Of a stretch of 64,000 nucleotides of DNA, positions 51,936 to 64,000 are shown piece after piece. The DNA is taken from the NCBI RefSeq assembly GCF_024699965.1, contig NZ_JAJOMZ010000004.1:2230001-2294000 (forward strand). Reading direction: 5' to 3'. Both the position numbers and the translations under genes were made by a program. Below the pieces are notes generated by a model. The model was given only the letters and a program-made list of their open reading frames with translations. It was not told the origin of the DNA and did not search any database. The DNA is from Flavobacterium sp. J372. Lineage in GTDB: Bacteria; Bacteroidota; Bacteroidia; Flavobacteriales; Flavobacteriaceae. Position 1 is the first letter of the stretch, and each line of letters opens with the position of its first letter.

Positions 51936-52508
51936 ATGAAGAAGATTTTATTGCTGCTGATGCTGGGAGTAACCATTAGCAGTATTGCACAAAAAGAATG
52001 TGACTATGCCATGAATGCCAAAGAAGATGGCAAGATGATAAAAAGCACAAAAGAATATATGATGTATGAGCGTGTATTTGGCGGCACAAGCACGTTTGTT
52101 TTCTTTTCTCTCACAAGTTCAGACGGATTGCCGATGCTTAATTTCCAGATGCTTGCAAAAAGTAAGGAATTCCCCAAAGCGCAATGTTTAGACAAAGCCT
52201 CAAAAATATACCTGCAACTTGAAAATAATAAAGTTGTAACCCTCATAAATGCACTTGAAACAGAAAATTGTGCCGGGCTTATGTATGATGCTGATAACAA
52301 AAACAACATCAGGGTGCTATCTGGGACGTTTCTATTTACTAAAGGCAGTCTTGAAGAACTGGAGAAAAGCCGCGTAACCATGATGCGAGTAAAGTATGCT
52401 ACGGAAATGGTTGACTACAGTATAAAAAAAGAACTTACAAGCGAAACCAATACAGTTAAATACTCACCCGAAAATTATTTTATTAATAACCTGAAGTGTA
52501 TACAATAG
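51936..52508 (+). CDS. Secreted hypothetical protein
   Basis: A 190-residue protein with a signal peptide (MKKILLLLMLGVTISSIAQ) and a mature part of about 170 residues without recognisable catalytic motifs. Cysteines occur at ECDYAM, AQCLDKASK, ENCAGLMYD and NLKCIQ. The open frame begins one codon earlier with TTG (51933); the ATG at 51936 is preferred. It lies just downstream of the methyltransferase and is the last core gene before the tRNAs. Confidence 0.7.
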   Translation: MKKILLLLMLGVTISSIAQKECDYAMNAKEDGKMIKSTKEYMMYERVFGGTSTFVFFSLTSSDGLPMLNFQMLAKSKEFPKAQCLDKASKIYLQLENNKVVTLINALETENCAGLMYDADNKNNIRVLSGTFLFTKGSLEELEKSRVTMMRVKYATEMVDYSIKKELTSETNTVKYSPENYFINNLKCIQ

Positions 52509-52587
52509 ATTGCAAATGCTATATTGTTGAGGCTTAAAGACTTTAACAATGTAGTTCAAAAAAAAATTAAAAAACCTTAAAAAATAG

Positions 52588-52618
52588 TTGCAGATAATAG
52601 AATTGAAAGTTACATTTG
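52588..52618 (+). promoter_or_regulatory. Two-part promoter for the tRNA operon (TTG-N20-TACATTTG)
   Basis: TTG at 52588-52590 and TACATTTG at 52611-52618, with a 20-base spacer, fit the flavobacterial -33/-7 consensus. It is placed 33 bases before tRNA-Ser. Confidence 0.65.
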
Positions 52619-52651
52619 CAACCGCAAAAGGCTAATGCCTTGGCGCAAGCA

Positions 52652-52735
52652 GGAGAGGTGCCGGAGTGGTAACGGAGCAGATTGCTAATCTGTCGGCGAG
52701 CAATCGTCGCCAGGGTTCGAGTCCCTGTCTCTCCG
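52652..52735 (+). tRNA. tRNA-Ser (GCT)
   Basis: A class II tRNA of 84 bases with a GGAGAGG acceptor, long variable arm (GGCGAGCAATCGTCGCC), TTCGAGTCC T-loop and the anticodon loop TTGCTAA. CCA is not encoded. It decodes AGC/AGU serine codons. Confidence 0.92.
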
Positions 52736-52742
52736 CTTCTTT

Positions 52743-52817
52743 CGGGGTGTAGCGTAGCCCGGTCATCGCGCCTGGTTTGGGACCAGGAGGTCGCAGGTTC
52801 GAATCCTGCCACCCCGA
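52743..52817 (+). tRNA. tRNA-Pro (TGG)
   Basis: A tRNA of 75 bases with CGGGGTG acceptor, anticodon loop TTTGGGA (anticodon TGG) and T-arm GCAGGTTCGAATCCTGC. CCA is not encoded. Its 3' end directly precedes the integrase-bearing island, the usual attachment-site position. Confidence 0.92.
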
Positions 52818-52842
52818 CTAAAAAGCCTTCAAAGGCAGTCAA

Positions 52843-52876
52843 AAACCCGCAAATCATTAGTATTTGCGGGTTTTTT
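52843..52876 (+). terminator. tRNA operon terminator
   Basis: Hairpin AAACCCGCAAAT / ATTTGCGGGTTT followed by a run of T's. Confidence 0.85.
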
Positions 52877-53112
52877 GTTTTTTTTATATCAAAAAACACC
52901 AAAGAATATCAATCTAAATGTGAGCAATTGCGTGAGCGAATTTCATAGTTTAATTTTACTCACCTATTAGCAGATAAGTAATTGAAAACAATGTTTTGCA
53001 TCAATTATTTTGAGGCTTCTTATTGCAGTTTGATACCCTTATGATCCGTTTCCCGTGAGCAGTTTTCTGGAACGAATACAAAATGTATCTGTTTAACACA
53101 AAATGTATTGGT

Positions 53113-54345
53113 ATGAGAAGCAAAAACACCTTTGGTATCCAGTTTATTATCAGGATGCCAAAACCACAGAAAAGTAATCAGGCAACGGTATATGCCCGCA
53201 TTACCGTTAACGGTCGCAGGGCTGAAATTTCCTTAAAGCAGAAAGTAGAACCTAAAGATTGGGATGATGTGAGGGGGCGTGCAAAGGGGAAGCGTGAAGA
53301 GATAATAAAACTCAATAGCCATATTGAGCGTGTGCGCGTAATCATAGCCGACGGCTATAATGACCTTGTTCAACAACGTAAAGCCGTAACGGTAGATAGA
53401 GTTAAGTCATTATTTGTTGGCGGCGAGGCAGATACAATGACATTGAGTAAACTTGTTGCGTATCATAATCAGGAAGCAACCTACAAGCTTGCACTGGGTA
53501 CAATAAAGAATTATCACACTACGCAAAAGTACATAGAAAGGTTCCTTAAGGAGAAATACAAAAGAAATGATATTGCCCTCTCAGAGCTTAATTACCGCTT
53601 TGTAATGGACTTTGAAAGCTATCTTGCGGCCTATGTCCCCCAAGACCACCAAAAGCCCCTTAAGAACAATGGTATCATGAAACACATTGAGCGGCTTCGT
53701 AAGATGGTCAACCTTGCAATTACATTAGATTGGCTATCCAAAGATCCATTCGCGAGTTACAAAAAGCATTTTGACAAAGTGGAACGCGAATGCCTAAGCA
53801 GTGAGGAATTGTCTAATCTTATAAAAAAACAGTTTACCATTCAACGCCTGCAACAAGTTCGTGATATGTTTCTGTTTAGCTGTTATACAGGACTTGCCTA
53901 TATTGATTTAGTGGAACTGACCAATGATAATATTGTTAAAGGTATTGATGGCGGACTTTGGATATCAATTAGCAGGGCGAAAACCGATACATGTGTTCGT
54001 GTGCCGCTTTTACCCCAAGCAGAGGTACTTATTGAAAAATATCGGGATGATCCGAGAGCGCAACATAGCGGAACAGCATTTCCTGTGATTTCCAATCAGC
54101 GTATGAACGGTTACCTAAAGGAAATTGCGGATATTTGCGGTATAACGAAAAAGCTAACATTCCACATCGCCCGTCATACTTTTGCCACTACTGTAACATT
54201 AAGCAACGGTGTGCCAATTGAAAGTGTTTCAAAAATGCTTGGACATACCAGTATTCGCACCACACAGATTTATGCCAAAGTAATAGAAAGTAAACTGAGT
54301 GAGGATATGGGCAAGCTCTGTGCTCGATTAGGAAATGGAATTTAA
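53113..54345 (+). CDS. CTn/phage-type tyrosine integrase
   Basis: A 410-residue Bacteroidota integrase with an N-terminal arm-binding domain (FGIQFIIRMPKPQK, VYARITVNGRRAEIS), a SAM-like core-binding domain (about 110-215) and a catalytic domain. Catalytic residues Lys (SRAKTD), HxxR (HIARHTFAT), His (LGHTS) and Tyr (TTQIYAKV) are present. The first Arg is replaced (TGLAYIDL where many families have TGLR), as in the CTnDOT group. It begins about 295 bases after tRNA-Pro, facing away from it. The start MRSKNTFG (53113) is preferred over an ATG at 53083. It marks the left end of an integrated element. Confidence 0.88.
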   Translation: MRSKNTFGIQFIIRMPKPQKSNQATVYARITVNGRRAEISLKQKVEPKDWDDVRGRAKGKREEIIKLNSHIERVRVIIADGYNDLVQQRKAVTVDRVKSLFVGGEADTMTLSKLVAYHNQEATYKLALGTIKNYHTTQKYIERFLKEKYKRNDIALSELNYRFVMDFESYLAAYVPQDHQKPLKNNGIMKHIERLRKMVNLAITLDWLSKDPFASYKKHFDKVERECLSSEELSNLIKKQFTIQRLQQVRDMFLFSCYTGLAYIDLVELTNDNIVKGIDGGLWISISRAKTDTCVRVPLLPQAEVLIEKYRDDPRAQHSGTAFPVISNQRMNGYLKEIADICGITKKLTFHIARHTFATTVTLSNGVPIESVSKMLGHTSIRTTQIYAKVIESKLSEDMGKLCARLGNGI

Positions 54346-54391
54346 GTCAAGGTAAATGCAAAGTGTTCGAATTCCTTATTACTCTAATTAA

Positions 54392-55487
54392 ATGGAAAAA
54401 CGTAAAACGTACGACCGTAATTTTAAATTTAACGCCGTCAAATTAGGGGTTGAAAGAGGTCTCCATAAAGTTTCAAAAGAGTTAGGTATACCATCTTCAA
54501 ATATATACAGCTGGCAAAAGGAACTCCAAGAATTTGGAACGGGAAGTTTTTGCGGAAGTGGTTATTTTAAAAACCCCGAGCAAAAAGAATTTTCGACCTT
54601 AAAAAAAACTGGAAGAATTGAAACTTCAAATTGAAATTTTTAAGAACGCAAATAAGCATATCGCTGCGGGGGAAACCTATGATCTTCCACTTTATTGAGA
54701 ACAATCTGGACAGGTACCCATTATGGAAAATGTGTAAAGCATTAGGAATATTGACAGGAACCTATCATAAATGGAAAAGCCAGGCAAAATCTCCAAGGCA
54801 ACGACAGAGTCTTTTATTGGAACAAGAAGTAACTGCAATATTTTATGAGTACAAACAGCGCTATGGCAATATAAGAATTTCGGAAGAATTAAAAAGCCGG
54901 GGCATTAAATTATCACCGGCTCAGGTTACCTTTACATGAAAAAATTAGGCCTTGTGAGTAAGCTAAGCACCAGCAATAAATCCAAGTATAGTTCACCATT
55001 TATTCCTTACAATCCCTGTATTTTTCCTAACATTCTAAACCGGCAATTTAACGCTGAAAAACCTGATCAGGTTTGGGTCTCGGCTATAACGAGCATTCAA
55101 ACAGTAACAGGACTTTTATTCCTAACAATTATCATGGACTTATATGACCGGAACATTATTGGATGGAGCCTCAGCGACAGACTAATGATAAAAGAAACGT
55201 CGATGCCAGCTTGGGAAATGGCCGTTCAGGATCGTACAATAAAGAAAGAATTACTATTCCATTCAGACAGAGGACCACAGTATGCGAATAAAGCATTTAC
55301 CCGTAAACTAGCCTCATATAAATGTATTAAGCGCAGTATGAGCCGGAAGGGAAATTATTTAGATAATGCTATACCAAGGAACTTTTTTACCTCCCTTAAG
55401 TCTGAACTTGTACAATCAGACGATCCTGTGACAAAAAAACAAATTGAAGAAGCATTGATAGCCTCCTCCAGAAATTGCTCCAAATAA
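54392..55487 (+). pseudogene. Dead IS3-family transposase (orfA/orfB relic)
   Basis: OrfA (54392-54634; MEKRKTYDRNFKFNAVKLGV) breaks at an A-run near 54601, and orfB is split again near 54937, leaving three frames. The integrase core is recognisable (PDQVWVSAITSIQT, LFHSDRGPQYAN, KRSMSRKGNYLDNA). The first catalytic Asp is Ala (VSAIT instead of VSDIT) and the catalytic Glu after DNA(V/I) is lost (AIPRNFF instead of AVCESFF). So this copy cannot transpose even if frames were corrected. It resembles the intact element that follows it by 30 bases. Confidence 0.85.
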
Positions 55488-55517
55488 ACTTATAGGGTAT
55501 AAATCAACACCTTTCAG

Positions 55518-56681
55518 ATGATAAAAAAATATGACCGTGCTTTTAAGGAGCATGCTGTTAAATTAAGTTATGAACGAGGCAAGGGACAAATTGTCGTTAT
55601 TGAACGAGAACTCGGAATTACACCGAGTTGCCTGAACAGATGGCGGCAGGATTTTGAAAAATATGGGGCAGGAAGTTTCTGCGGGACAGGTTATTTAAAA
55701 TTAACACCCAACCAATCTGTAATTACTGAACTCGAAAATAAAATTAAAGACTCAGAAGTTGCTCTGGAAATTTTAAAGCGAGGCACCGGATCTGTTACTC
55801 AGGGAAAAATAGCAACCAAACAATTCATTGAAGAAAATAAAGGTAAATTTTCAATTTTAAAAATGTGTGCTGTATTGGGCGTGTCGAGAACTACCTATTA
55901 CCGCAGGAAGAAACAGGAATTATCAGATACAGAATCCCGAATAATTTTACTCAAACAAGAGATTGTCTCCATATTTAATGAACATAAGCAAACTTATGGA
56001 TGCAGAAAAATTACAAAAGAGCTTCACAAACGGGGATTTAAGATACAGAGTGCGCAGGTCACCAGTTATATGAGAATGCTTGGCCTACGTTGTAAAACCA
56101 AGAGGAAGTATAAGCCGACCACCGATTCAAATCACAACCATTATACATTTCCTAATGTTTTAAACAGGCAATTTACTGTTGATGCGCCCGCCAAGGCATG
56201 GGTTTCAGACATCACATATATCCAAACGGTGAGAGGTTTCGTATATCTAACTATTATTATGGACTTGTTTGATAGAAAAATTATTGGATGGAATCTAAGT
56301 AATAGAATGAAGACTAAAGAAACTACTTTGCCTGCTTGGGAAATGGCGGTTAAAAACAGAAAAATTACGAAGGATTTGATTTTTCATTCCGATAAAGGGG
56401 TTCAATATGCCAATAAGATTTTCTGTAAGGCTTTAAATGCTCACAAGTTCGTCAGGCAGAGTATGAGCCGCAAACAAAACCATAATGATAATGCCGTCTG
56501 CGAAAGTTTTTTCAGGTCTTTTAAGTTGGAATTACTTAATGGAAGTACACTTTTGGCAAGAAAACAAATGAAAGTCGAAGTAGATGATTATATCGAAAAT
56601 TGGTACAATAAAAAAAGAAGGCATTCATTTTTGGACTACAAGACCATCGAAGAATTTGATCGAATCAATAATTTAATCTGA
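55518..56681 (+). mobile_element. IS3-family transposase, intact and in one frame
   Basis: A 387-residue transposase with an N-terminal HTH (residues 5-45, DRAFKEHAVKLSYERGKGQ), a short linker where IS3 elements usually shift frame, then an rve-type DDE domain. The triad is Asp231 (VSDITYI), Asp292 (HSDKGVQY) and Glu329 (VCESFFRSF). Most IS3 members split orfA and orfB with a programmed -1 shift; here they are continuous. Terminal inverted repeats were not located by eye in the flanks. Its relation to the dead copy upstream (similar throughout) suggests a tandem insertion pair. Confidence 0.87.
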
Positions 56682-56753
56682 ATCAATACTATTAGTTAAT
56701 GCAAAATTTGCCTTTCGGTATAAAAGATTATGACATAAATCCACTTATAAAGT

Positions 56754-56790
56754 AAGGACAAGGATGTGTATTTCATCTTTGTCCTTTTTT
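56754..56790 (+). terminator. Hairpin between the IS element and the recombinase
   Basis: AAGGACAAGGATG / CATCTTTGTCCTT stem followed by a T-run on the plus strand. Confidence 0.65.
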
Positions 56791-56804
56791 AAATTCAGTT
56801 TATC

Positions 56805-57725
56805 TTAAAGCTTTGAACATTTGTTCAATTGCTTTCTTTTTTGTTCCATATTAGGATGAACATAAAGATTTAAAGTTGTACTTATGTTAGAATGGCCCAA
56901 TAAAACACTAACTGTTTTGTAATCACAATTGCTTTCTATACATCTGGTTGCAAAACTATGTCTTAGTCCATGAAATTTAAGATCTGGCATGCCTAAGTCT
57001 TTCATAAGAGTTTTATAGTAACTTCTATAGGTTCTTGGTTCAGTCGGTTTAGCATCATTTGTCAAGACAAAAAATGAAGGGTTAACTATCTTCTTGAAAG
57101 GCTTAAGTATTTTTAAAAGATCTTTATTTAAAGGTATGTCGCGAATCGAGTTTTTAGTTTTTGGAGTGTCCAAAATCAACTCTGTTTTCCGTAAACCATC
57201 ATCTATATTATAAATTCGTTGTATCGTTCGCCTGACGTTAATTATTCCGTTATCAGTATCAATATCCTCCCATGTGAGAGCGCAGATTTCTCCAATACGA
57301 ATACCGGCACTTAAACAAATATAAACTCCCAGATTTCGAAATGTGAAGTGTTCTTGAATATAGTTCATTATTTTTTTCTGGTCACTTCGACTCAAAACGT
57401 CAATACTTTGTTTTTCACGATCTGTGGGAAATTGAATATCGAAAGGTGTGTAATTTAAAAATTTTCTTTTTGCTCCGAATTTTAAGATCATTTTTAATAC
57501 AATCAAAATATCTTTGATTGTCTTTTGACTTAAACCATTATTCAATTTCTGAAACACAAATAATTGTACATCAGCCTCCTGTACTTCCCTTTTATCACCA
57601 AAATTAGGCAATAAATGGTTTTCAATTAATAGTATGTAGGCTGAAAAACTTGATTTCTTTACATACTGCTTTTTGTCTGCTTTCCACAGATCAATTACTT
57701 CGAAAATTTGCTTTTGTTGATTCAT
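56805..57725 (-). CDS. Tyrosine recombinase of the hsdS shufflon
   Basis: A 306-residue XerC/phage-integrase-type recombinase. It has an N-terminal core-binding domain (about 1-100) and a catalytic domain with Arg143 (GIRIGEIC), Lys near 191 (TPKTKNS), His252 and Arg255 (HGLRHSF), His278 (LLGHSN) and nucleophile Tyr288 (LNLYVHP), so all catalytic residues are present. Its ATG is 72 bases from the 44-bp inverted repeat that bounds the hsdS cassettes, and it reads away from them. Such recombinases next to hsdS invert specificity domains in Bacteroides and Streptococcus Type I systems, and it is the obvious agent for the repeats here. Confidence 0.88.
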   Translation of the reverse strand: MNQQKQIFEVIDLWKADKKQYVKKSSFSAYILLIENHLLPNFGDKREVQEADVQLFVFQKLNNGLSQKTIKDILIVLKMILKFGAKRKFLNYTPFDIQFPTDREKQSIDVLSRSDQKKIMNYIQEHFTFRNLGVYICLSAGIRIGEICALTWEDIDTDNGIINVRRTIQRIYNIDDGLRKTELILDTPKTKNSIRDIPLNKDLLKILKPFKKIVNPSFFVLTNDAKPTEPRTYRSYYKTLMKDLGMPDLKFHGLRHSFATRCIESNCDYKTVSVLLGHSNISTTLNLYVHPNMEQKRKQLNKCSKL

Positions 57726-57797
57726 ATAAGTTAATTTTTACAAACTGTTCAAAGAAAAGAAATACACACAAAACCTTTAGGATTTAAAAGAACGAAT

Positions 57798-57841
57798 GTT
57801 CCCAATTTGAGATTCCCTGGGTTTGAGGGGGAATGGGAAGT
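57798..57841. repeat. 44-bp inverted repeat, copy 1 (5' hsdS repeat)
   Basis: Exact reverse complement of 61294-61337. In the hsdS frame it encodes VPNLRFPGFEGEWEV, the shared N-terminus of both specificity genes. The pair brackets 3.5 kb of hsdS cassettes, and inversion would exchange which hsdS body follows the expressed start codon. Confidence 0.95.
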
Positions 57842-58961
57842 GAAAAAATTGGTAGATGTTGCAAAAATTATTGGAGGCGGAACTCCAGACACAAACATTG
57901 AAGAATATTGGAATGGCAACATCCAATGGTTTACACCAAGCGAGATAAAATCGAGTTTTGTTACAAAAAGCAACAGGACAATTACAGAATTAGGTTTAAA
58001 AAGGTCATCTGCAAAATTATTGCCCAAGGGAACAATTCTGTTAACAACAAGGGCTACAATTGGCGAAGTTGCTATTGCCAATGAACAGTGCTCTACGAAC
58101 CAAGGATTTCAATCTTTGATAGTGAACGATACAACAAATAATATTTTCATATCTAATTGGATTAAACATAATAAAAATGAGTTCATTAAACGAGCTAATG
58201 GTTCTACTTTTTCAGAAATAAGTAGATCAGAGATAGAAGATATCGAGGTGTTTATTCCATCAATTAATGAGCAGGAAAAAATAGCGAGCCTTTTATCATT
58301 AATTGACGAAAGAATCCAAACCCAAAGCAAAATAATTGAACAATTAGAAACCTTAATTAAAGGGCTAAGTGAAAAGCTGTTTTCTCAGAAACTGAGGCTA
58401 CGAGGATTTACGCAAGAATGGACGACGAAAAGCGGAGATGAAATATTTACAAATATTTCAAATAAAAATCATGATTCAGACCTACCCATTCTAGCTGTAA
58501 CACAAGAATATGGGGCAATTCCAAGAAACTTAATTGACTACAATGTAACTGTCACAGAAGAAAGTGTTAGTGGCTACAAAGTTGTTGAAAAAGGAGATTT
58601 CATTATTAGCCTAAGATCTTTTCAAGGAGGTATAGAATATTCTGAATATGACGGAATTTGTAGCCCTGCATATGTTATCTTACGCCCTGTAATTCCTGTA
58701 GACAGAACTTTTTATAAATATTACTTAAAAACTGGTAGTTACATAATAAATCTTAATAAGAGGTTGGAAGGAATCAGGGATGGGAAGATGATAAGTTATA
58801 AATATTTCTCAGAAATACTATTACCTTTTCCATCTCACAAAGAACAAACAGCTATAGCCAAATTTCTTTCTTCAATCGACGGTAAAAGGCGGATGGAGAA
58901 AAGTTTGTTAGATGGATATCAATCTCAAAAGCGATATTTATTACAAAACCTATTTATATAA
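57807..58961 (+). CDS. Silent hsdS cassette (S2), two recognition domains, no start codon
   Basis: A Type I specificity subunit body of about 385 residues: first target-recognition domain (about residues 12-150; VDVAKIIGGGTPDT), central conserved helix (INEQEKIASLLSLIDERI, then the 38-bp repeat encoding LIKGLSEKLFSQ), second domain (190-340) and a terminal helix (KEQTAIAKFLSSIDG, YLLQNLFI). Upstream the frame is open back to a stop at 57732-57734 but contains no ATG or plausible leader, and the nominal TTG lies inside the 44-bp repeat. So it cannot be expressed in this orientation and is a storage cassette for inversion. Confidence 0.88.
   Translation: MRFPGFEGEWEVKKLVDVAKIIGGGTPDTNIEEYWNGNIQWFTPSEIKSSFVTKSNRTITELGLKRSSAKLLPKGTILLTTRATIGEVAIANEQCSTNQGFQSLIVNDTTNNIFISNWIKHNKNEFIKRANGSTFSEISRSEIEDIEVFIPSINEQEKIASLLSLIDERIQTQSKIIEQLETLIKGLSEKLFSQKLRLRGFTQEWTTKSGDEIFTNISNKNHDSDLPILAVTQEYGAIPRNLIDYNVTVTEESVSGYKVVEKGDFIISLRSFQGGIEYSEYDGICSPAYVILRPVIPVDRTFYKYYLKTGSYIINLNKRLEGIRDGKMISYKYFSEILLPFPSHKEQTAIAKFLSSIDGKRRMEKSLLDGYQSQKRYLLQNLFI
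58353..58390. repeat. 38-bp inverted repeat, copy 1 (central hsdS repeat)
   Basis: Exact reverse complement of 59562-59599. It encodes LIKGLSEKLFSQ in the central conserved region between the two recognition domains of S2. The pair brackets a 1.2-kb segment; inversion would swap the second recognition domain behind S2's first. Confidence 0.95.
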
Positions 58962-58972
58962 ACAAGTTTTGT
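58943..58972. repeat. Near-palindrome at convergent hsdS 3' ends (site 1)
   Basis: Imperfect 30-bp palindrome with core TTTATATAAA and arms ACAAAAC/GTTTTGT, lying where S2 and cassette C converge and share their stop region by eight bases. It may act as a terminator or recombination site. Confidence 0.6.
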
Positions 58973-59599
58973 AGGAGGTGCAGTTTTTGCATTTGATAAT
59001 TTTGCAGTAATTTTTTTTCAATAATTATTCTTTCATCAATAGAGGAAAGAAATTGGGCGATGATAATTTGCTCTTTTGGCAAGGCAATAATATGTGCAAT
59101 TTCATTAATCCCCCTTAGAAATATTATATCGGGTACTCCCTTGTGCCAACCTAACTATTTGTTTTCTGAATACTGAATTTCTAAAAAGATAACTAGCAAA
59201 AAGGGGATTAAGAATTTGTAGTGAAAATGCTCTAAATCCAAAACAAAAACTATTTAAATACATTTCGTTTACTTCTTCTAATAAAACTGAGGACATTCCT
59301 ATTTCATAAGGGGTTTCTGATGAAATAGTAAAAAAAGCATCCCCATACTTTACACTATTTTGACTTTCATTTTCTATAATTTCTACAAGGCCACAATTTT
59401 CTATTTGAACTTTAGAAGAATCAAAAATTTGTTTGTATTGAATATAGGGTTTACCTTTTCCAAAATTATCTTTCGTTTTTCCTGACAGACCGTTAAAAGG
59501 TTGTCCTATCTCTCCCAAGTTCCTCAATTCCCATTCATGCCTAAATTCTTTAAATCTAATATTCTGAGAAAACAGCTTTTCACTTAGCCCTTTAATTAA
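58954..59599 (-). CDS. hsdS half-cassette C (second recognition domain), silent
   Basis: Reads from the 38-bp repeat (LIKGLSEKLFSQNIRFKEF) through a distinct recognition domain (LRNLGEIGQPFNGLSGKTKD, QYKQIFDSSKVQIENCG) to the shared C-terminal helix (LPKEQIIIAQFLSSIDERI, LHLLQNLFI). No start codon; it is an alternative second half for S2. The frame breaks at the five-base run 59110-59114: four G's on the minus strand read NISKGINEIAHII and restore the C-terminus. The shared tail and repeat mark it as a shufflon cassette, not a decayed gene. Confidence 0.83.
59562..59599. repeat. 38-bp inverted repeat, copy 2
   Basis: Minus-strand copy of the central hsdS repeat, heading cassette C. Confidence 0.95.
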
Positions 59600-59615
59600 A
59601 GATTTATTTTCCTCT

Positions 59616-60170
59616 GTGAATACGATTCGCTATCGGCTTTATACACAGACTCATAATGAAAGGAATGAATTGGTACAGATTAGAGATATTTTAAATTATG
59701 AACAACCGACGAAATATTTGGTTACAAATACAGATTACTCTTTTAATATTGAGTCAACACCTGTTTTGACTGCAAATAAAGCCTTTATATTAGGATATAC
59801 AGATGAAGATTTCGGAATTTATGATAAAGGAGAGAATATTATTTTTGATGATTTTACCATGGATATGAAATTTGTTGATTTTCCTTTTAAAGTAAAATCT
59901 TCTGCTATAAAAATACTAACAGCTAAACGAAATGTGGATTTGAAATTTATGTTTGAATATTTGTTCTTCTTAGATTTATCATCTAATGAACATAAGCGTC
60001 ATTATATTTCAGAAATTGAGCCAATGAAAATTTCACTGCCAGATTTCAACCAACAGAAGCAGATTTCAATCGTTTTATCTAGTATTGACAAAAAACTAAA
60101 AACTGAATCTGAAATTCGTATGTTATTGATAAAACAAAAACAATATTTGTTGGCTAATTTATTTATATAA
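59616..60170 (+). CDS. hsdS half-cassette D (recognition domain and C-terminal helix), silent
   Basis: A third body with no ATG start (nominal GTG at 59616 within NTIRYRLYTQTHNERNEL). It has one complete recognition domain (LVQIRDILNYEQPTKYLVTN, VLTANKAFILGYTDED, IFDDFTMDMKFVDFPFKV) and the shared tail (QQKQISIVLSSIDKK, QYLLANLFI). It is back-to-back with cassette C and convergent with the expressed hsdS. Unlike C it lacks the 38-bp repeat, so how it enters the expressed gene is unclear; only a short AATACG match to the central region of the expressed hsdS is seen. Confidence 0.82.
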   Translation: MNTIRYRLYTQTHNERNELVQIRDILNYEQPTKYLVTNTDYSFNIESTPVLTANKAFILGYTDEDFGIYDKGENIIFDDFTMDMKFVDFPFKVKSSAIKILTAKRNVDLKFMFEYLFFLDLSSNEHKRHYISEIEPMKISLPDFNQQKQISIVLSSIDKKLKTESEIRMLLIKQKQYLLANLFI

Positions 60171-60179
60171 ACAAATTAG
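60154..60179. repeat. Near-palindrome at convergent hsdS 3' ends (site 2)
   Basis: CTAATTT-TTTATATAAA-AAATTAG, an almost perfect 26-bp palindrome spanning the overlapping stops of D and the expressed hsdS. It shares the core with site 1. Confidence 0.6.
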
Positions 60180-61367
60180 TTAGTAAGTATTTTTCTCTAC
60201 TTCTAATTTTTGTAAAAGCTGAAGTTCAATATTAATTTTTGAGTCAAAAGATGAAAGGAAATTAGCGATTTTCAATTGTTCTTCCGGTGGAGGAATTGAA
60301 ATTTTAAACTTTGAAAACTCTGTTTTGTTAATAATAGGCATTGTAGATGAGGCTTGGATAGATTTTATAAATCCTGAAATGTTTGCAATCGCATAGAACA
60401 CAAATTCATTATTAAAATCTGAATTAGGGATAAGGGAATTAATTTGTTGGTTTGTCACACAAGGTTTTAATGATAAACTCATCTTACCAATTGAAGCTAT
60501 ACAAGTAAACATTATGCTCTTAGGTGGTAAAATTTTTAACTTGTCAGTTTTTTTAATTGTCCTTTCAGTTGTATATTGATACTTATCTAGACGTATGTCT
60601 GTTGGTGTTACAAACTGTATATCTCCATCCCACAAGTCTAGATCTGCGGTACTTGGCGTTTTTCCTGTAATTATTTGGCCAATATCTCCGAGCATTATGT
60701 TTTTCCAATCACCAAAGGAATAATCATTATCATCTTTAAATCTCAATTCACGTGAGAATAACTGCTTGTTAAGCGTATTCTTTAGCAATTTAAGTTCCTC
60801 AATTATTTTGTTTTGAGTTTGAATACGAAGGTCTAATAGCGATAAAAAATCAGCTATTTTCTTTTGCTCTTCTTTACTTGGCAAAGCAATAGAGAAGCTT
60901 TTCAAATCGCCTCCATTTATTGAGTTTATAGTAGCTCCTAAGTTTTTATTTACAGTTTCTTTATATTTTTGAGTATCAAACCATTGAAAAATAAATTGAT
61001 TAAAGGGACTTCTATAAACCGACATAAACGCACCAAACGCAAGACCTTCATTTTCTTTTTTTATGAGTGCATTTTTACCTATTAAATTTTTGCTGCCATT
61101 TCTGACGCATATTAAAATATCATTTTCCTTCACCTGATTATAATTCAAAACTTTTACATACACATTATCATCAAAAACTATGTTTCTATTTTGAACATTG
61201 GAAGACCTTAGAACTAATACACCATTTTCATTAATATCATTAGGATTATAAGTTAGTCCATTTACAATCTCTCCAATTTCCCCTAACTTCTTTACTTCCC
61301 ATTCCCCCTCAAACCCAGGGAATCTCAAATTGGGAACGTTACCTACTTTTAATTCTTTATTAGCCAT
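60163..61367 (-). CDS. hsdS: Expressed Type I specificity subunit HsdS (S1), frameshifted in the last codons
   Basis: The only specificity gene with an ATG (61365-61367) and a leader (MANKELKVGN) before the 44-bp repeat. First recognition domain about 20-160 (LGEIGEIVNGLTYNPND), central helix (EEQKKIADFLSLLDLRI, LKNTLNKQLFSREL), second domain about 225-355 (LGDIGQIITGKTPST) and C-terminal helix. One base is missing in the five-base T-run 60190-60194; restored it reads LEVEKKYLLTNLFI with stop at 60163-60165, matching the tail of the other cassettes. 44 bases downstream of hsdM on the same strand. It determines the DNA target of the HsdM/HsdR complex. Confidence 0.9.
61294..61337. repeat. 44-bp inverted repeat, copy 2
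   Basis: Reverse complement of 57798-57841, ten codons inside the expressed hsdS. The start codon and leader lie outside it, so inversion would put S2's body behind them. Confidence 0.95.
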
Positions 61368-61411
61368 CTCAATAATTCAAATTTCGTTAGTAAAAGCATT
61401 AAGGATATAAA

Positions 61412-63038
61412 TTAGAAAGTTAGTCCCAATTCCTTAAAATATCCTTCTATTTCTTTGTCCAATTCTGCCCGTTTGGCTTCCAAGGATTTGATTTCCTGCA
61501 TTACCGCCTGAATATCTACAGGCTCTTCTTCTACATGTGTACTTATATATCGCGAAATATTAAGATTGTAGCCGTTTTCCTCAATCTCTCTTATTGGAAC
61601 TCTACGTGAATAGCGCTCTTCTTCATTTCGGAACTGATATGTTTCTACTATTTTGTCTATGTCATTTGGCTCCCCGTTATCTCCCTCACGTAAACGGTTT
61701 TGCCGTTTGTCCTTTTTATAGCATTCACTTGCATTGATAAACAATACATCGTCAAATCTCTTGCATTTTTTTAATATAAGAATGCAAACCGGAATACCTG
61801 TAGAAAAGAACAGATTTGAAGGCAGTCCAATTACAGTATCTATATGATTATCTTTTAGTAACTTGGTGCGAATCCGTTCTTCGGCACCGCTTCGGAACAA
61901 TACTCCATGCGGAAGTATAATTGCCATCGTTCCTTCATTAGAAAGATAATGAAAGCCATGAATTAAAAAAGCAAAATCGGCTGCTGATTTTGGTGCCAAA
62001 CCGTAACTTTTGAAGCGGAAATCATCTGCCAGCCTATCATTAGGTTCCCATTTCAAACTGAAAGGAGGATTGGCAACAATACCATCAAATTCAATTTTCT
62101 TAGCAGGATTCATTTCATTAAGCATATCCCAATCATTCAAAAGTGTATCTCCATGATGAATCTCAAATTCGGTGTCTTTTACTCCGTGAAGTAACATATT
62201 CATACGAGCAAGGTTATATGTGGTAATGTTCTTCTCTTGTCCGTATATCTTTCCTATATGACCACCGCTTTCCTCTAATTGTCGGCGTACATTCAACAAT
62301 AATGATCCCGAACCACAGGCGAAATCCAGTACCCTATCTAATTTTTTTCTTTTCTCCTAAAGAAGGGTTCTGACTATCTAAGATCACAATTTTTGATAAG
62401 ATGGTAGACATCTGCTGCGGTGTATAAAATTCACCTGCTTTTTTGCCTGAGCCTGCTGCAAACTGCCCAATAAGATATTCGTAAGCATCCCCTAAAATAT
62501 CAGTGTCGGTAGAAAAAACAGCAATCCCTTCTGCAATTTTTTGAATGATATTACAAAGTTTTTTATTCCTTTCAGGAGCTGTTTTGCCTAATTTTTCAGA
62601 ATTCAGATTGATTTCAGAAAATAATCCTTGAAAGGTACTTTCAAAAGATTCATTTTCTATATATCTAAAACCCTCTTCAAGTGTAATTAATAAGTCATTG
62701 TTTTGAGTCCTGGCTAACTCTGCAATATTACTCCACAAATGTTGCGGTTTGATGACATAATGAATTTTTCTTCGCATTTGCTTTTCAAAATCAGGCACAT
62801 CTGCTTTGTATGCTGTATACCACAAGCCTAAAGCTGTAAAATTGTCATCTTGCTTTAATTGTGGATAATCTTTCCCTAATTCTTTTTTTGCTGCTTCTTC
62901 GTAGTTATCAGATAAATACCGTAGAAAAAGAAATGAAAGCATATAATCGCGAAAATCATCTGCATTCATTGCTCCGCGTAGTTGATCAGCTATTTCCCAA
63001 AGGGTTTTACCCAATTGTTGTTGTTCTTTTAATGTCAT
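61412..63038 (-). CDS. hsdM: Type I DNA-adenine methyltransferase HsdM, frameshifted
   Basis: A protein of about 541 residues with an N-terminal helical HsdM_N domain (LWEIADQLRGAMNADDFRDYMLSF is split over the start region), AYEYLIGQFAAGSGKKAGEFYTP, the SAM motif DFACGSGSL and catalytic NPPF (VANPPFSLKW), and IVIALPHG-like ILPHGVLFR further on. The seven-base T-run 62342-62348 adds one base; removed, GEKKKLDRVLDFACGSG reads through. Modifies both strands with HsdS. Two bases after the anticodon nuclease stop, so the three genes form one operon. Confidence 0.93.
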
Positions 63039-63040
63039 AA

Positions 63041-64000
63041 TTATTTTATTTCTTCAACAAGTATTTCAGGTAAATAAAATTCATATTTTCTAAGAAACTC
63101 TTGTAATATGTTTTTAAAAAGTTTTTTATTATCCGCACCCATTTCCACTGGTTCATAAATAGAATATTTACCATGGCTCAACAGGTTTAAAGCACGAGCG
63201 TATAATGTTTCGTCATTTATCCCATGAATGCACTTAGAAAAATCATCAAAACCAAAAAAAAGTTGCTGTTTTTTCTAAGGTACTTCGCAACATGTTAAAA
63301 TGATAAGTACTAATTTTATTTGATTCTGCAGCATGTTTTAACTCACTTAAAAGAGCCACATGATGAAAAAAAGGCGTATCATCAGTTGCCCTTAAAGTAT
63401 GCCCATCTGTTCCATTTTTGTGTAGAAAGTATCGCTTATGATTATTCTTTTTCAATTCATTGCAAATCACATTAAAAAATAGATTGTGGTGAGAGGATAT
63501 AATGATTTTTACTTTACCAATTCCTTTTATTAATGTCTTAACTAAATCGCTTGCCACAGCAATTGCATTATTGTCATCCAATGAAGAAATAGGATCGTCT
63601 ATATAAATATACTTTACCCAATTGTAAGCTTCATCACCGTCTATAGTTAATTCACATATTACCAGGAAAATACACCAAATAAAGATATTTTCCTCTCCAC
63701 GAGAGATTTTAATATTATCTTGAACAATATATTCTGGTTCATCTGTATTGGGTTTGTATTTCGGATTTTTAATTCCTTTACGAAATACAACTTGCCATTT
63801 TTCATAATCTATTTTAAAGTCAAATTCAGCATAACGTTCCAAATAAACGAAAATTTTTTCTTCCAAAGCCAGTTCTCTGAAACCATTGAAGAAATTTGAT
63901 TTGGAATTTATTTTAAGGGTACGATCTCTGTCATTATCCAAATCGTTATCCCAATAAAAAAGATCCTCAGTGAAGGCAGTAAAATAAAGTGTATCTGAAC
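63041..64000 (-). CDS. PrrC-like anticodon nuclease, N-terminus beyond window, frameshifted
   Basis: The visible part begins FTEDLFYWDNDL and has the ABC-like ATPase elements ISRGEEN (signature), YIYIDDPISSLDDNN (Walker B) and IIISSHHNLFF (H-loop). The C-terminal nuclease part carries LRSTLEKT and, 33 residues after its Glu, the His of LLSHGKYS. These fit the Arg-x3-Glu...His (spacing 32) catalytic triad of E. coli PrrC, which cuts tRNA-Lys. An extra T/A in the eight-base run 63254-63261 breaks the frame; removed, ATFFGFDDFSKC reads through to a stop at 63041-63043. It is directly upstream of hsdM, the partner that keeps PrrC latent. Confidence 0.83.

What the first reader, a model, noticed from the sequence alone, without database searches (positions are those of the whole stretch)
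56805..61367. Phase-variable Type I restriction-modification shufflon with its own recombinase
Four specificity bodies (S1 expressed, S2, C and D silent) lie in alternating orientation between a start-bearing hsdS and a tyrosine recombinase with a complete catalytic set. Two different perfect inverted repeats fall exactly at the 5' end and the central conserved region of hsdS, the sites used in known inverting Type I systems of Streptococcus and Bacteroides. Recombination would exchange first and second recognition domains, so one cell line could methylate several alternative targets. The order and cassettes appear specific to this strain.
Basis: partly seen in the sequence, partly recalled or inferred. 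Interest (0 to 1): 0.9.

Follow-up and report, generated by a model that had tools for sequence, protein, structure and literature searches.

The report
Shuffling recognition genes of a restriction system
A Flavobacterium-like bacterium keeps spare, mirror-image copies of the recognition part of a DNA-defence enzyme next to a recombinase, so flipping the DNA should let its cells switch between several target sequences; this is a richer version of a switch already known in other bacteria.

Summary
In detail: perfect inverted repeats of 44 and 38 bp, four hsdS bodies in alternating orientation, and a tyrosine recombinase with the full catalytic set. This is an inverting (phase-variable) Type I R-M locus, a known kind, in a genome of the genus of F. 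granuli. Natural rearrangement is supported: a metagenome HsdS joins S2's first to S1's second domain, switching inside site 2, and four related loci hold cassettes of 88-99% DNA identity in different slots. The order is shared across genera, not strain-specific. A PrrC anticodon nuclease lies between hsdR and hsdM. Five frame breaks near homopolymer runs, perhaps assembly errors, leave present activity unproven. No reads were available.

The parts
56805..57725 (-). tyrosine recombinase of the locus (306 aa)
   Evidence: Phage_integrase 104 bits; catalytic residues aligned with 6emy; relatives of 66-86% identity next to hsdS in other species
57807..58961 (+). S2, silent two-domain hsdS body without an own upstream start
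   Evidence: two Methylase_S stretches; first start codon is a TTG inside the 44-bp repeat
58960..59604 (-). C, silent second-domain half with linker A; frame-broken
   Evidence: pieces in separate frames; same slot in L034, L035, L036, L038, L045
59616..60170 (+). D, silent second-domain half with linker B
   Evidence: Methylase_S 30 bits; relatives in the same slot and, in L035, in the expressed gene
60180..61367 (-). S1, hsdS in the expressed position behind hsdM
   Evidence: ATG start, two Methylase_S stretches, 180 bits
57798..57841 (+). 44-bp perfect inverted repeat, S2 copy; its first 20 bp (57798-57817) are site 1
61294..61337 (-). 44-bp perfect inverted repeat, S1 copy; site 1 at 61318-61337
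58317..58339 (+). site 2, S2 copy (21 of 23 bases as in the S1 copy; last 12 identical)
   Evidence: the chimera P0012 switches here
60799..60821 (-). site 2, S1 copy
58353..58390 (+). 38-bp perfect inverted repeat (site A, linker A), S2 copy
59562..59599 (-). 38-bp perfect inverted repeat (site A), C copy
60774..60780 (-). site B core (7 bp, linker B), S1 copy
   Evidence: blastn boundary of S1-slot/D-slot cassettes in relatives
59618..59624 (+). site B core (7 bp), D copy
61412..63038 (-). hsdM, in two ORFs (62334-63038 and 61412-62299)
   Evidence: HsdM_N and N6_Mtase; TIGR00497; one open frame in L036
63246..64000 (-). prrC-like anticodon nuclease gene (starts at 64190, beyond the window), frame-broken near its end
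   Evidence: PADLOC PrrC 376.7 bits over model 11-288 of 372; AAA_13

Best explanation
It is an inverting Type I restriction-modification locus. hsdM is followed by one expressed hsdS (S1); behind it lie, tail to tail and back to back, two silent second-domain halves (D, C) and a silent full body (S2), and then the recombinase. The tyrosine recombinase inverts DNA between like sites in opposite orientation: site 1 (5' end of S1 and S2) swaps whole bodies; site 2 (centre of S1 and S2) joins the first domain of one body to the second of the other; site A swaps second domains between C and the body bearing linker A; site B swaps second domains between D and the body bearing linker B. The expressed HsdS can then be any of 2 first x 4 second domains, so HsdM/HsdR would be aimed at up to 8 targets. 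Shown here: the parts, their order, the sites, and rearranged products in relatives. Inferred: that this recombinase does all four exchanges, that they happen in this strain at useful rates, and that the enzyme is active.
For: Exact repeats and layout. Of 29 loci with a recombinase of 66-86% identity, 21 hold enough DNA to judge; 19 of these have two opposed hsdS bodies between hsdM and recombinase (in L045 the expressed one is broken near its start), 2 do not (L037 insertion, L051 without hsdS); 8 are cut by contig ends. Nine further loci from another search have an hsdS facing the recombinase. Site 1: the two copies agree within a locus at positions 1-20 in 18 of 18 loci (17 of 18 at positions 16 and 19), also at positions 6 and 18, where loci differ from each other (between-locus agreement 0.35 and 0.53); agreement falls to 8 of 18 just before and 12 of 18 just after. 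Codons there (TTG, AGA in 18 of 19 loci) are more uniform than any conserved Leu (39) or Arg (10) column of hsdM. P0012: 97% to S2 over domain 1, 97% to S1 over domain 2, switching inside site 2. Cassettes at 88-99% DNA identity sit in different slots in L034, L035, L038, L045, with match borders at the site A and B cores. Reachable states by simulation: 16, with 8 expressed HsdS.
Against: No reads, so no inversion was seen in this strain. hsdM, hsdR, prrC, C and the end of S1 are frame-broken, so the system may be dead unless these are assembly errors. Site B shares only 7 bp, and the four site classes share no common core beyond chance. The reciprocal product of P0012 was not among the listed hits. 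TRD families also cross between linker A and B slots and between first and second position (families 0, 7, 9, 12), so other exchange happens over longer times. The relatives that show cassette exchange are partly one lineage, so the events are few.
Confidence: 0.8

Rival explanations
1. The recombinase uses only site 1 (and perhaps site 2); exchanges at A and B are rare events by homologous or illegitimate recombination on an evolutionary time scale.
For: Site 1 is the strongly constrained 20-bp site; no common motif links the four classes; site B shares 7 bp; the D/C pair is present in only 5 of 29 relatives, one more has a single half.
Against: In L034/L035/L038/L045 the cassette borders fall at the same short cores, where homologous recombination has little to act on; cores agree within a locus while differing between loci (site B 6 of 6 loci, site A GG[G/A]CT 7 of 7, though four of these loci are near kin and other site A positions differ in L033, L035, L036).
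Confidence: 0.3
2. The locus is a decayed, static remnant: inverted paralogues kept from an active ancestor.
For: Frame breaks in hsdM, hsdR, prrC, C and the S1 end; a broken IS copy lies near.
Against: The recombinase is intact and the 44- and 38-bp repeats are perfect. All five break zones hold a homopolymer run of 5 or more, while 17% of positions in 56801-64000 lie within 5 bp of one (the hsdR zone is 92 bp wide), and the genome has more short TonB-receptor frames than a complete relative (4 of 19 listed under 650 aa against 1 of 23 in G026, a weak test), as expected of an error-prone assembly. L036 has hsdM and prrC open and hsdR open as far as held.
Confidence: 0.2
3. The repeats are only conserved coding sequence of paralogous hsdS genes and no site-specific recombination takes place.
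For: Repeats code for conserved HsdS parts.
Against: Sharp 20-bp limits of within-locus identity, synonymous uniformity above hsdM, the chimera P0012, relocated cassettes, and four held-out loci (L077-L080) whose two copies share just 10-12 bp at site 1.
Confidence: 0.04

Closest known systems
Pneumococcal SpnIII / Spn556II (cod) Type I locus with PsrA/CreX (PMC4948785, PMC6620402, PMC7096588: passages seen)
   Same: Type I hsdR/M, one expressed and silent hsdS in inverted orientation, a locus-borne tyrosine recombinase, several classes of inverted repeat, one as short as 15 bp, exchange of both TRDs; six forms stated in PMC7394358 passages.
   Different: There the three repeats (15, 85, 298-333 bp) share a 10-bp core (PMC6620402 passage); here four site classes share no core above chance. 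Here 2 x 4 domains and two back-to-back second-domain halves; recombinase sequence relation not tested directly.
Bacteroides fragilis Type I R-M shufflons, e.g. HMW615 with a xerC next to R-M genes (PMC5729914: passages seen)
   Same: Same phylum, R-M shufflon with an adjacent tyrosine recombinase gene, carried on transferred DNA.
   Different: Sites and recombinase of that locus were not compared here; sequence not fetched.
Four-way inverting Type I systems with two opposed hsdS (S. suis and others; PMC7394358: passages seen)
   Same: Inverted repeats before the 5' TRD and between the TRDs; most relatives found here have just this two-body form.
   Different: The window adds the D/C pair and site classes A and B.
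EcoprrI with PrrC (PMC3874165, PMC2610378, PMC12707154: passages seen)
   Same: prrC embedded in a Type I locus whose HsdR has the EcoR124_C domain.
   Different: Order hsdR-prrC-hsdM-hsdS; here the specificity gene is shufflable. Silencing of the nuclease by the enzyme was not tested.

Membership tests
Inverting (phase-variable) Type I R-M system | Type I hsdM, hsdS and hsdR in one locus | tested here: met
   (hsdM and hsdR each in two ORFs)
Inverting (phase-variable) Type I R-M system | at least two different hsdS bodies in opposite orientation, only one with an expression start | tested here: met
   expression itself not measured
Inverting (phase-variable) Type I R-M system | inverted repeats before the first TRD and between the TRDs | tested here: met
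   44-bp pair; central site 2, 12 bp identical between S1 and S2; 38-bp pair S2/C
Inverting (phase-variable) Type I R-M system | site-specific recombinase at the locus (frequent, not required) | tested here: met
Inverting (phase-variable) Type I R-M system | alternative orientations or methylation motifs in one clonal population | not testable with these tools
   no reads or methylation data; only rearranged relatives
Pneumococcal cod/SpnIII type | one short core shared by all repeat classes | tested here: not met
   in 5 loci the best 8- or 10-mer over all classes is matched by 6-72 of 100 shuffles
PrrC-linked Type IC R-M | prrC within a Type I locus with a type IC HsdR | tested here: met
   PrrC 376.7 bits; EcoR124_C 205 bits; gene frame-broken near its end, intact in L036
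PrrC-linked Type IC R-M | nuclease held silent by the R-M enzyme | not testable with these tools
   needs an experiment

The most novel reading that the evidence does not exclude
One recombinase lineage of Bacteroidota works on four unrelated short sites (cores of about 7-20 bp) hidden inside coding sequence, without a shared core, to build 8 specificities from 6 recognition domains; and in two genera this changing enzyme carries a PrrC anticodon nuclease as a guard, so the guard must stay silent whichever HsdS is in place.
Probability: 0.3. Interest if true: 0.65.

Novelty: new variant of a known kind. Interest (0 to 1): 0.5.

Why it matters
If true, one cell line can hold subpopulations with different restriction and methylation targets, which matters for phage defence, gene transfer and gene regulation. 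The set of related loci gives mapped, testable sites for a recombinase family that is present in 14 of 395 sampled genomes of the order, the window's own included. The missing shared core poses a clear question about how a tyrosine recombinase picks its sites, and the PrrC link asks how a toxic guard tolerates a partner that changes specificity.

Tried and rejected
Shared core of all site classes: tested in 5 loci, negative. Site 2 codon uniformity: I read the site 2 rows one base out of frame, so those rows are not used; one search is base by base and stands. Viral contigs: 8 stretches matched a pattern, none encodes a relative of the recombinase. Inverted repeats at the far end of the island gave nothing of note. 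Rows dropped: from the site 1 profile L041 (no silent copy within 4 mismatches) and L046 (no copy within 4 mismatches; it has a 66-bp repeat that begins alike), and the loci cut by contig ends; from the site 2 profile L041, L043 and L056. The sites were found by pattern scans allowing 4-5 mismatches, which favours conserved copies. Alternative that tail palindromes (TTTATATAAA at the S2/C and D/S1 joins) are a further recombination site: possible, not needed, not tested. That L045 shows a site 1 rather than a site 2 inversion cannot be told apart. Strain-level comparison: one genome per species is held, so none was possible. Not held: the papers asked for.
Full report
OBSERVATION. Exact search of 52001-64000 finds two long perfect inverted repeats, 44 bp (57798-57841 / 61294-61337) and 38 bp (58353-58390 / 59562-59599); the next is a 16-bp self-palindrome. 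S1 and S2 carry two Methylase_S stretches each, D one; C is frame-broken and gives no match as listed, but its pieces read as a second-domain half. All five Methylase_S matches in the genome lie here. The recombinase has Phage_integrase (104 bits) and aligns over R, K, H-x-x-R, H, Y with the Int protein of 6emy (residue roles recalled).

SURROUNDINGS. The window is G000:C4:2230001-2294000. G017, of the same genus, has the locus on a contig of 251696 bases, which by length and coordinates is the Flavobacterium granuli record of L041, so the genome belongs to that genus (inference). Behind S1 come hsdM (two ORFs), a PrrC-like gene (PADLOC PrrC, 376.7 bits over 11-288 of 372) and, beyond the window, hsdR in two ORFs with EcoR124_C in the second. 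A 15-bp direct repeat at the 3' end of tRNA-Pro (52804-52818) and at 80126-80140 (window numbering continued) brackets about 27 kb with an integrase next to the tRNA (53083-54345) and AbiEii- and NACHT-type genes: probably a mobile defence island (inference). GC is 34% in 52900-64000 and 31% in the shufflon against 42% in 1-52000.

RELATIVES. A scan of genome contigs found 29 loci with a recombinase of 66-86% identity in Flavobacterium, Chryseobacterium, Epilithonimonas, Myroides, Moheibacter, Mucilaginibacter, Carboxylicivirga and others (one record is labelled an Ignatzschineria MAG). Twenty-one hold enough DNA to judge; 19 have two opposed hsdS bodies between hsdM and the recombinase, L037 has unrelated genes there and L051 no hsdS; 8 are cut by contig ends. 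The silent D/C pair is present in L034, L035, L036, L038 and L045, a single half in L033. An order-wide sample finds the recombinase (E <= 1e-80) in 14 of 395 genomes, own included, in 4 of 108 genera. Of its 13 loci with DNA beyond the window's own, 4 repeat earlier ones and 9 are new; all 9 have an hsdS facing the recombinase.

SITES. Site 1 is a 20-bp stretch, GTTCCNAATTTGAGATTYCC. Over 18 loci (window included) the two copies agree within a locus at all 20 positions except one locus each at positions 16 and 19; at positions 6 and 18 loci differ from each other (between-locus agreement 0.35 and 0.53) yet the two copies match in 18 of 18; just outside, agreement is 8 of 18 and 12 of 18. Its Leu and Arg codons are TTG and AGA in 18 of 19 loci (pairwise codon identity 0.89), above every one of 39 Leu and 10 Arg conserved columns of hsdM from 20 loci; the two Pro codons are ordinary. 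In eight loci fetched later with the expressed copy in hand (L074 was cut), L072, L073 and L075 share 32 to over 100 bp and L076-L080 share 10-12 bp (TTTCCNAATT; in L076 the aligned stretch was checked), which narrows the core; the expressed hsdS of L073 and L076 is broken. Site 2 (QTQNKIIE) has a block near-identical in all copies; in the window 12 bp are identical between S1 and S2. After site 2 there are two linkers: A (S2 and C) and B (S1 and D). S2 and C share the 38-bp repeat; S1 and D share 7 bp, GAATACG. In six loci with the pair the B core is the same in both copies although it is GAATACG in two loci and GATTACG in four; for A the GG[G/A]CT end agrees in 7 of 7 loci, other positions differ in L033, L035 and L036. 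Four of these loci are near kin, so this is few independent cases. No common motif joins the four classes: in 5 loci, 6 to 72 of 100 shuffles do as well. This differs from the pneumococcal locus, whose three repeats share 10 bp (PMC6620402, passages).

REARRANGED RELATIVES. Of 237 proteins from two searches, P0012 (389 aa, ENA) is 97% identical to S2 over domain 1 and 97% to S1 over domain 2; the change falls within QTQSKIIE, that is in site 2. Like S2 it lacks the usual N-terminus. The longest contig given for it and for the nearest recombinase relative (P0238, 97%) is 9535 bases in both cases, so they probably lie on one contig (inference). The reciprocal product was not among the listed hits. 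At DNA level, one second-domain cassette is in the expressed gene of L034 and L038, in slot D of L035 and in the silent body of L045 (97-99%); a second is in slot D of L034, L038, L045 and in the expressed gene of L035 (96-99%); a third is in the silent body of L034 and L038 and in slot C of L035 and L045 (88-99%); a fourth is in slot C of L034 and in the expressed gene of L045 (99%). The match borders lie at the site A and B cores. L045 also has the C/D block in the other order, as expected after a site 1 or site 2 inversion. Over longer distances TRD families cross between linker classes and between first and second position (families 0, 7, 9, 12), so slots are not absolute.

MECHANISM. Shown: parts, sites, rearranged relatives. 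Inferred: catalysis by this recombinase at all four, activity in this strain, target change.

FRAME BREAKS. hsdR, prrC, hsdM, C and the end of S1 are broken. Each break zone contains a run of 5 or more equal bases (the hsdR zone is 92 bp wide), where 17% of positions lie within 5 bp of one. TonB-receptor frames under 650 aa: 4 of 19 listed in G000, 1 of 23 in the complete genome G026 (weak, lists capped). Assembly error is likely but unproven. L036 has hsdM (546 aa frame) and prrC (376 aa frame) open, and 81-95% identical hsdR, PrrC and hsdM: intact copies exist.

PRRC. Among all loci held, only L036 also has PrrC at the locus (held flanks only). PrrC is described as invariably linked to type IC systems (PMC2610378, passage). 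A search for PrrC with hsdS and phase-variable listed 4 papers; passages of two (PMC12707154, PMC3874165) do not link PrrC with hsdS inversion, the other two I saw as listing only.

LITERATURE. Inversion between hsdS genes is called a well-known phenomenon (PMC5903667, passages); a REBASE survey gives 3.9% of Type I systems (PMC7394358, passages); PsrA was first tied to IR1 only (PMC4948785, passages) and later to all three repeats (PMC7096588, passages). B. fragilis and Prevotella intermedia have such loci (PMC5729914, PMC5608340, passages). In the listings I saw no paper titled on hsdS inversion in Flavobacterium or Chryseobacterium; that is no proof of absence, and two likely sources were not held.

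VERDICT. A real, well-formed member of a known kind, with an extended 2 x 4 layout, mapped sites and a PrrC neighbour: new variant of a known kind, interest 0.5.

Noticed in passing
63246-64190 (window numbering continued beyond 64000): PrrC-like anticodon nuclease gene between hsdR and hsdM, frame-broken near its end; 89% identical intact relative in L036.
   Followed up: partly
52804-52818 and 80126-80140 (continued numbering): 15-bp direct repeat at the tRNA-Pro 3' end and 27 kb further, with integrase 53083-54345 beside it: likely borders of a mobile island that carries the R-M locus, an AbiEii-type and a NACHT-type gene.
   Followed up: partly
54392-56681: Two IS3-like transposase copies in tandem (family name recalled), the first broken into several ORFs, the second open (387 aa), between the island integrase and the recombinase.
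   Followed up: no
58951-58965 and 60160-60174: The tail-to-tail hsdS joins share TATTTATATAAACAA; in relatives these joins are perfect palindromes of 42-48 bp. Possible two-way terminator or further site.
   Followed up: no
L051:8084-10828: hsdM, a single site 1 and a recombinase lacking its first 29 residues, with no hsdS between: looks like a deletion of the shufflon.
   Followed up: no
L037: Silent hsdS is followed by unrelated ORFs; other hsdS matches of that genome lie about 13 kb away: large insertion or rearrangement.
   Followed up: no
L031, L032, L044, L047, L050: Contigs end about 100-225 bp from the recombinase start, that is near site 1; this could be assembly breakage at the repeats or at mixed orientations.
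   Followed up: no
L036, L038, L041, L045: Other genes stand between hsdM and hsdS in some relatives; not identified by search.
   Followed up: no
P0005, P0021, P0025: HsdS proteins in which relatives of S2's two domains occur in swapped order (S2's second domain first): domains move between first and second position.
   Followed up: no
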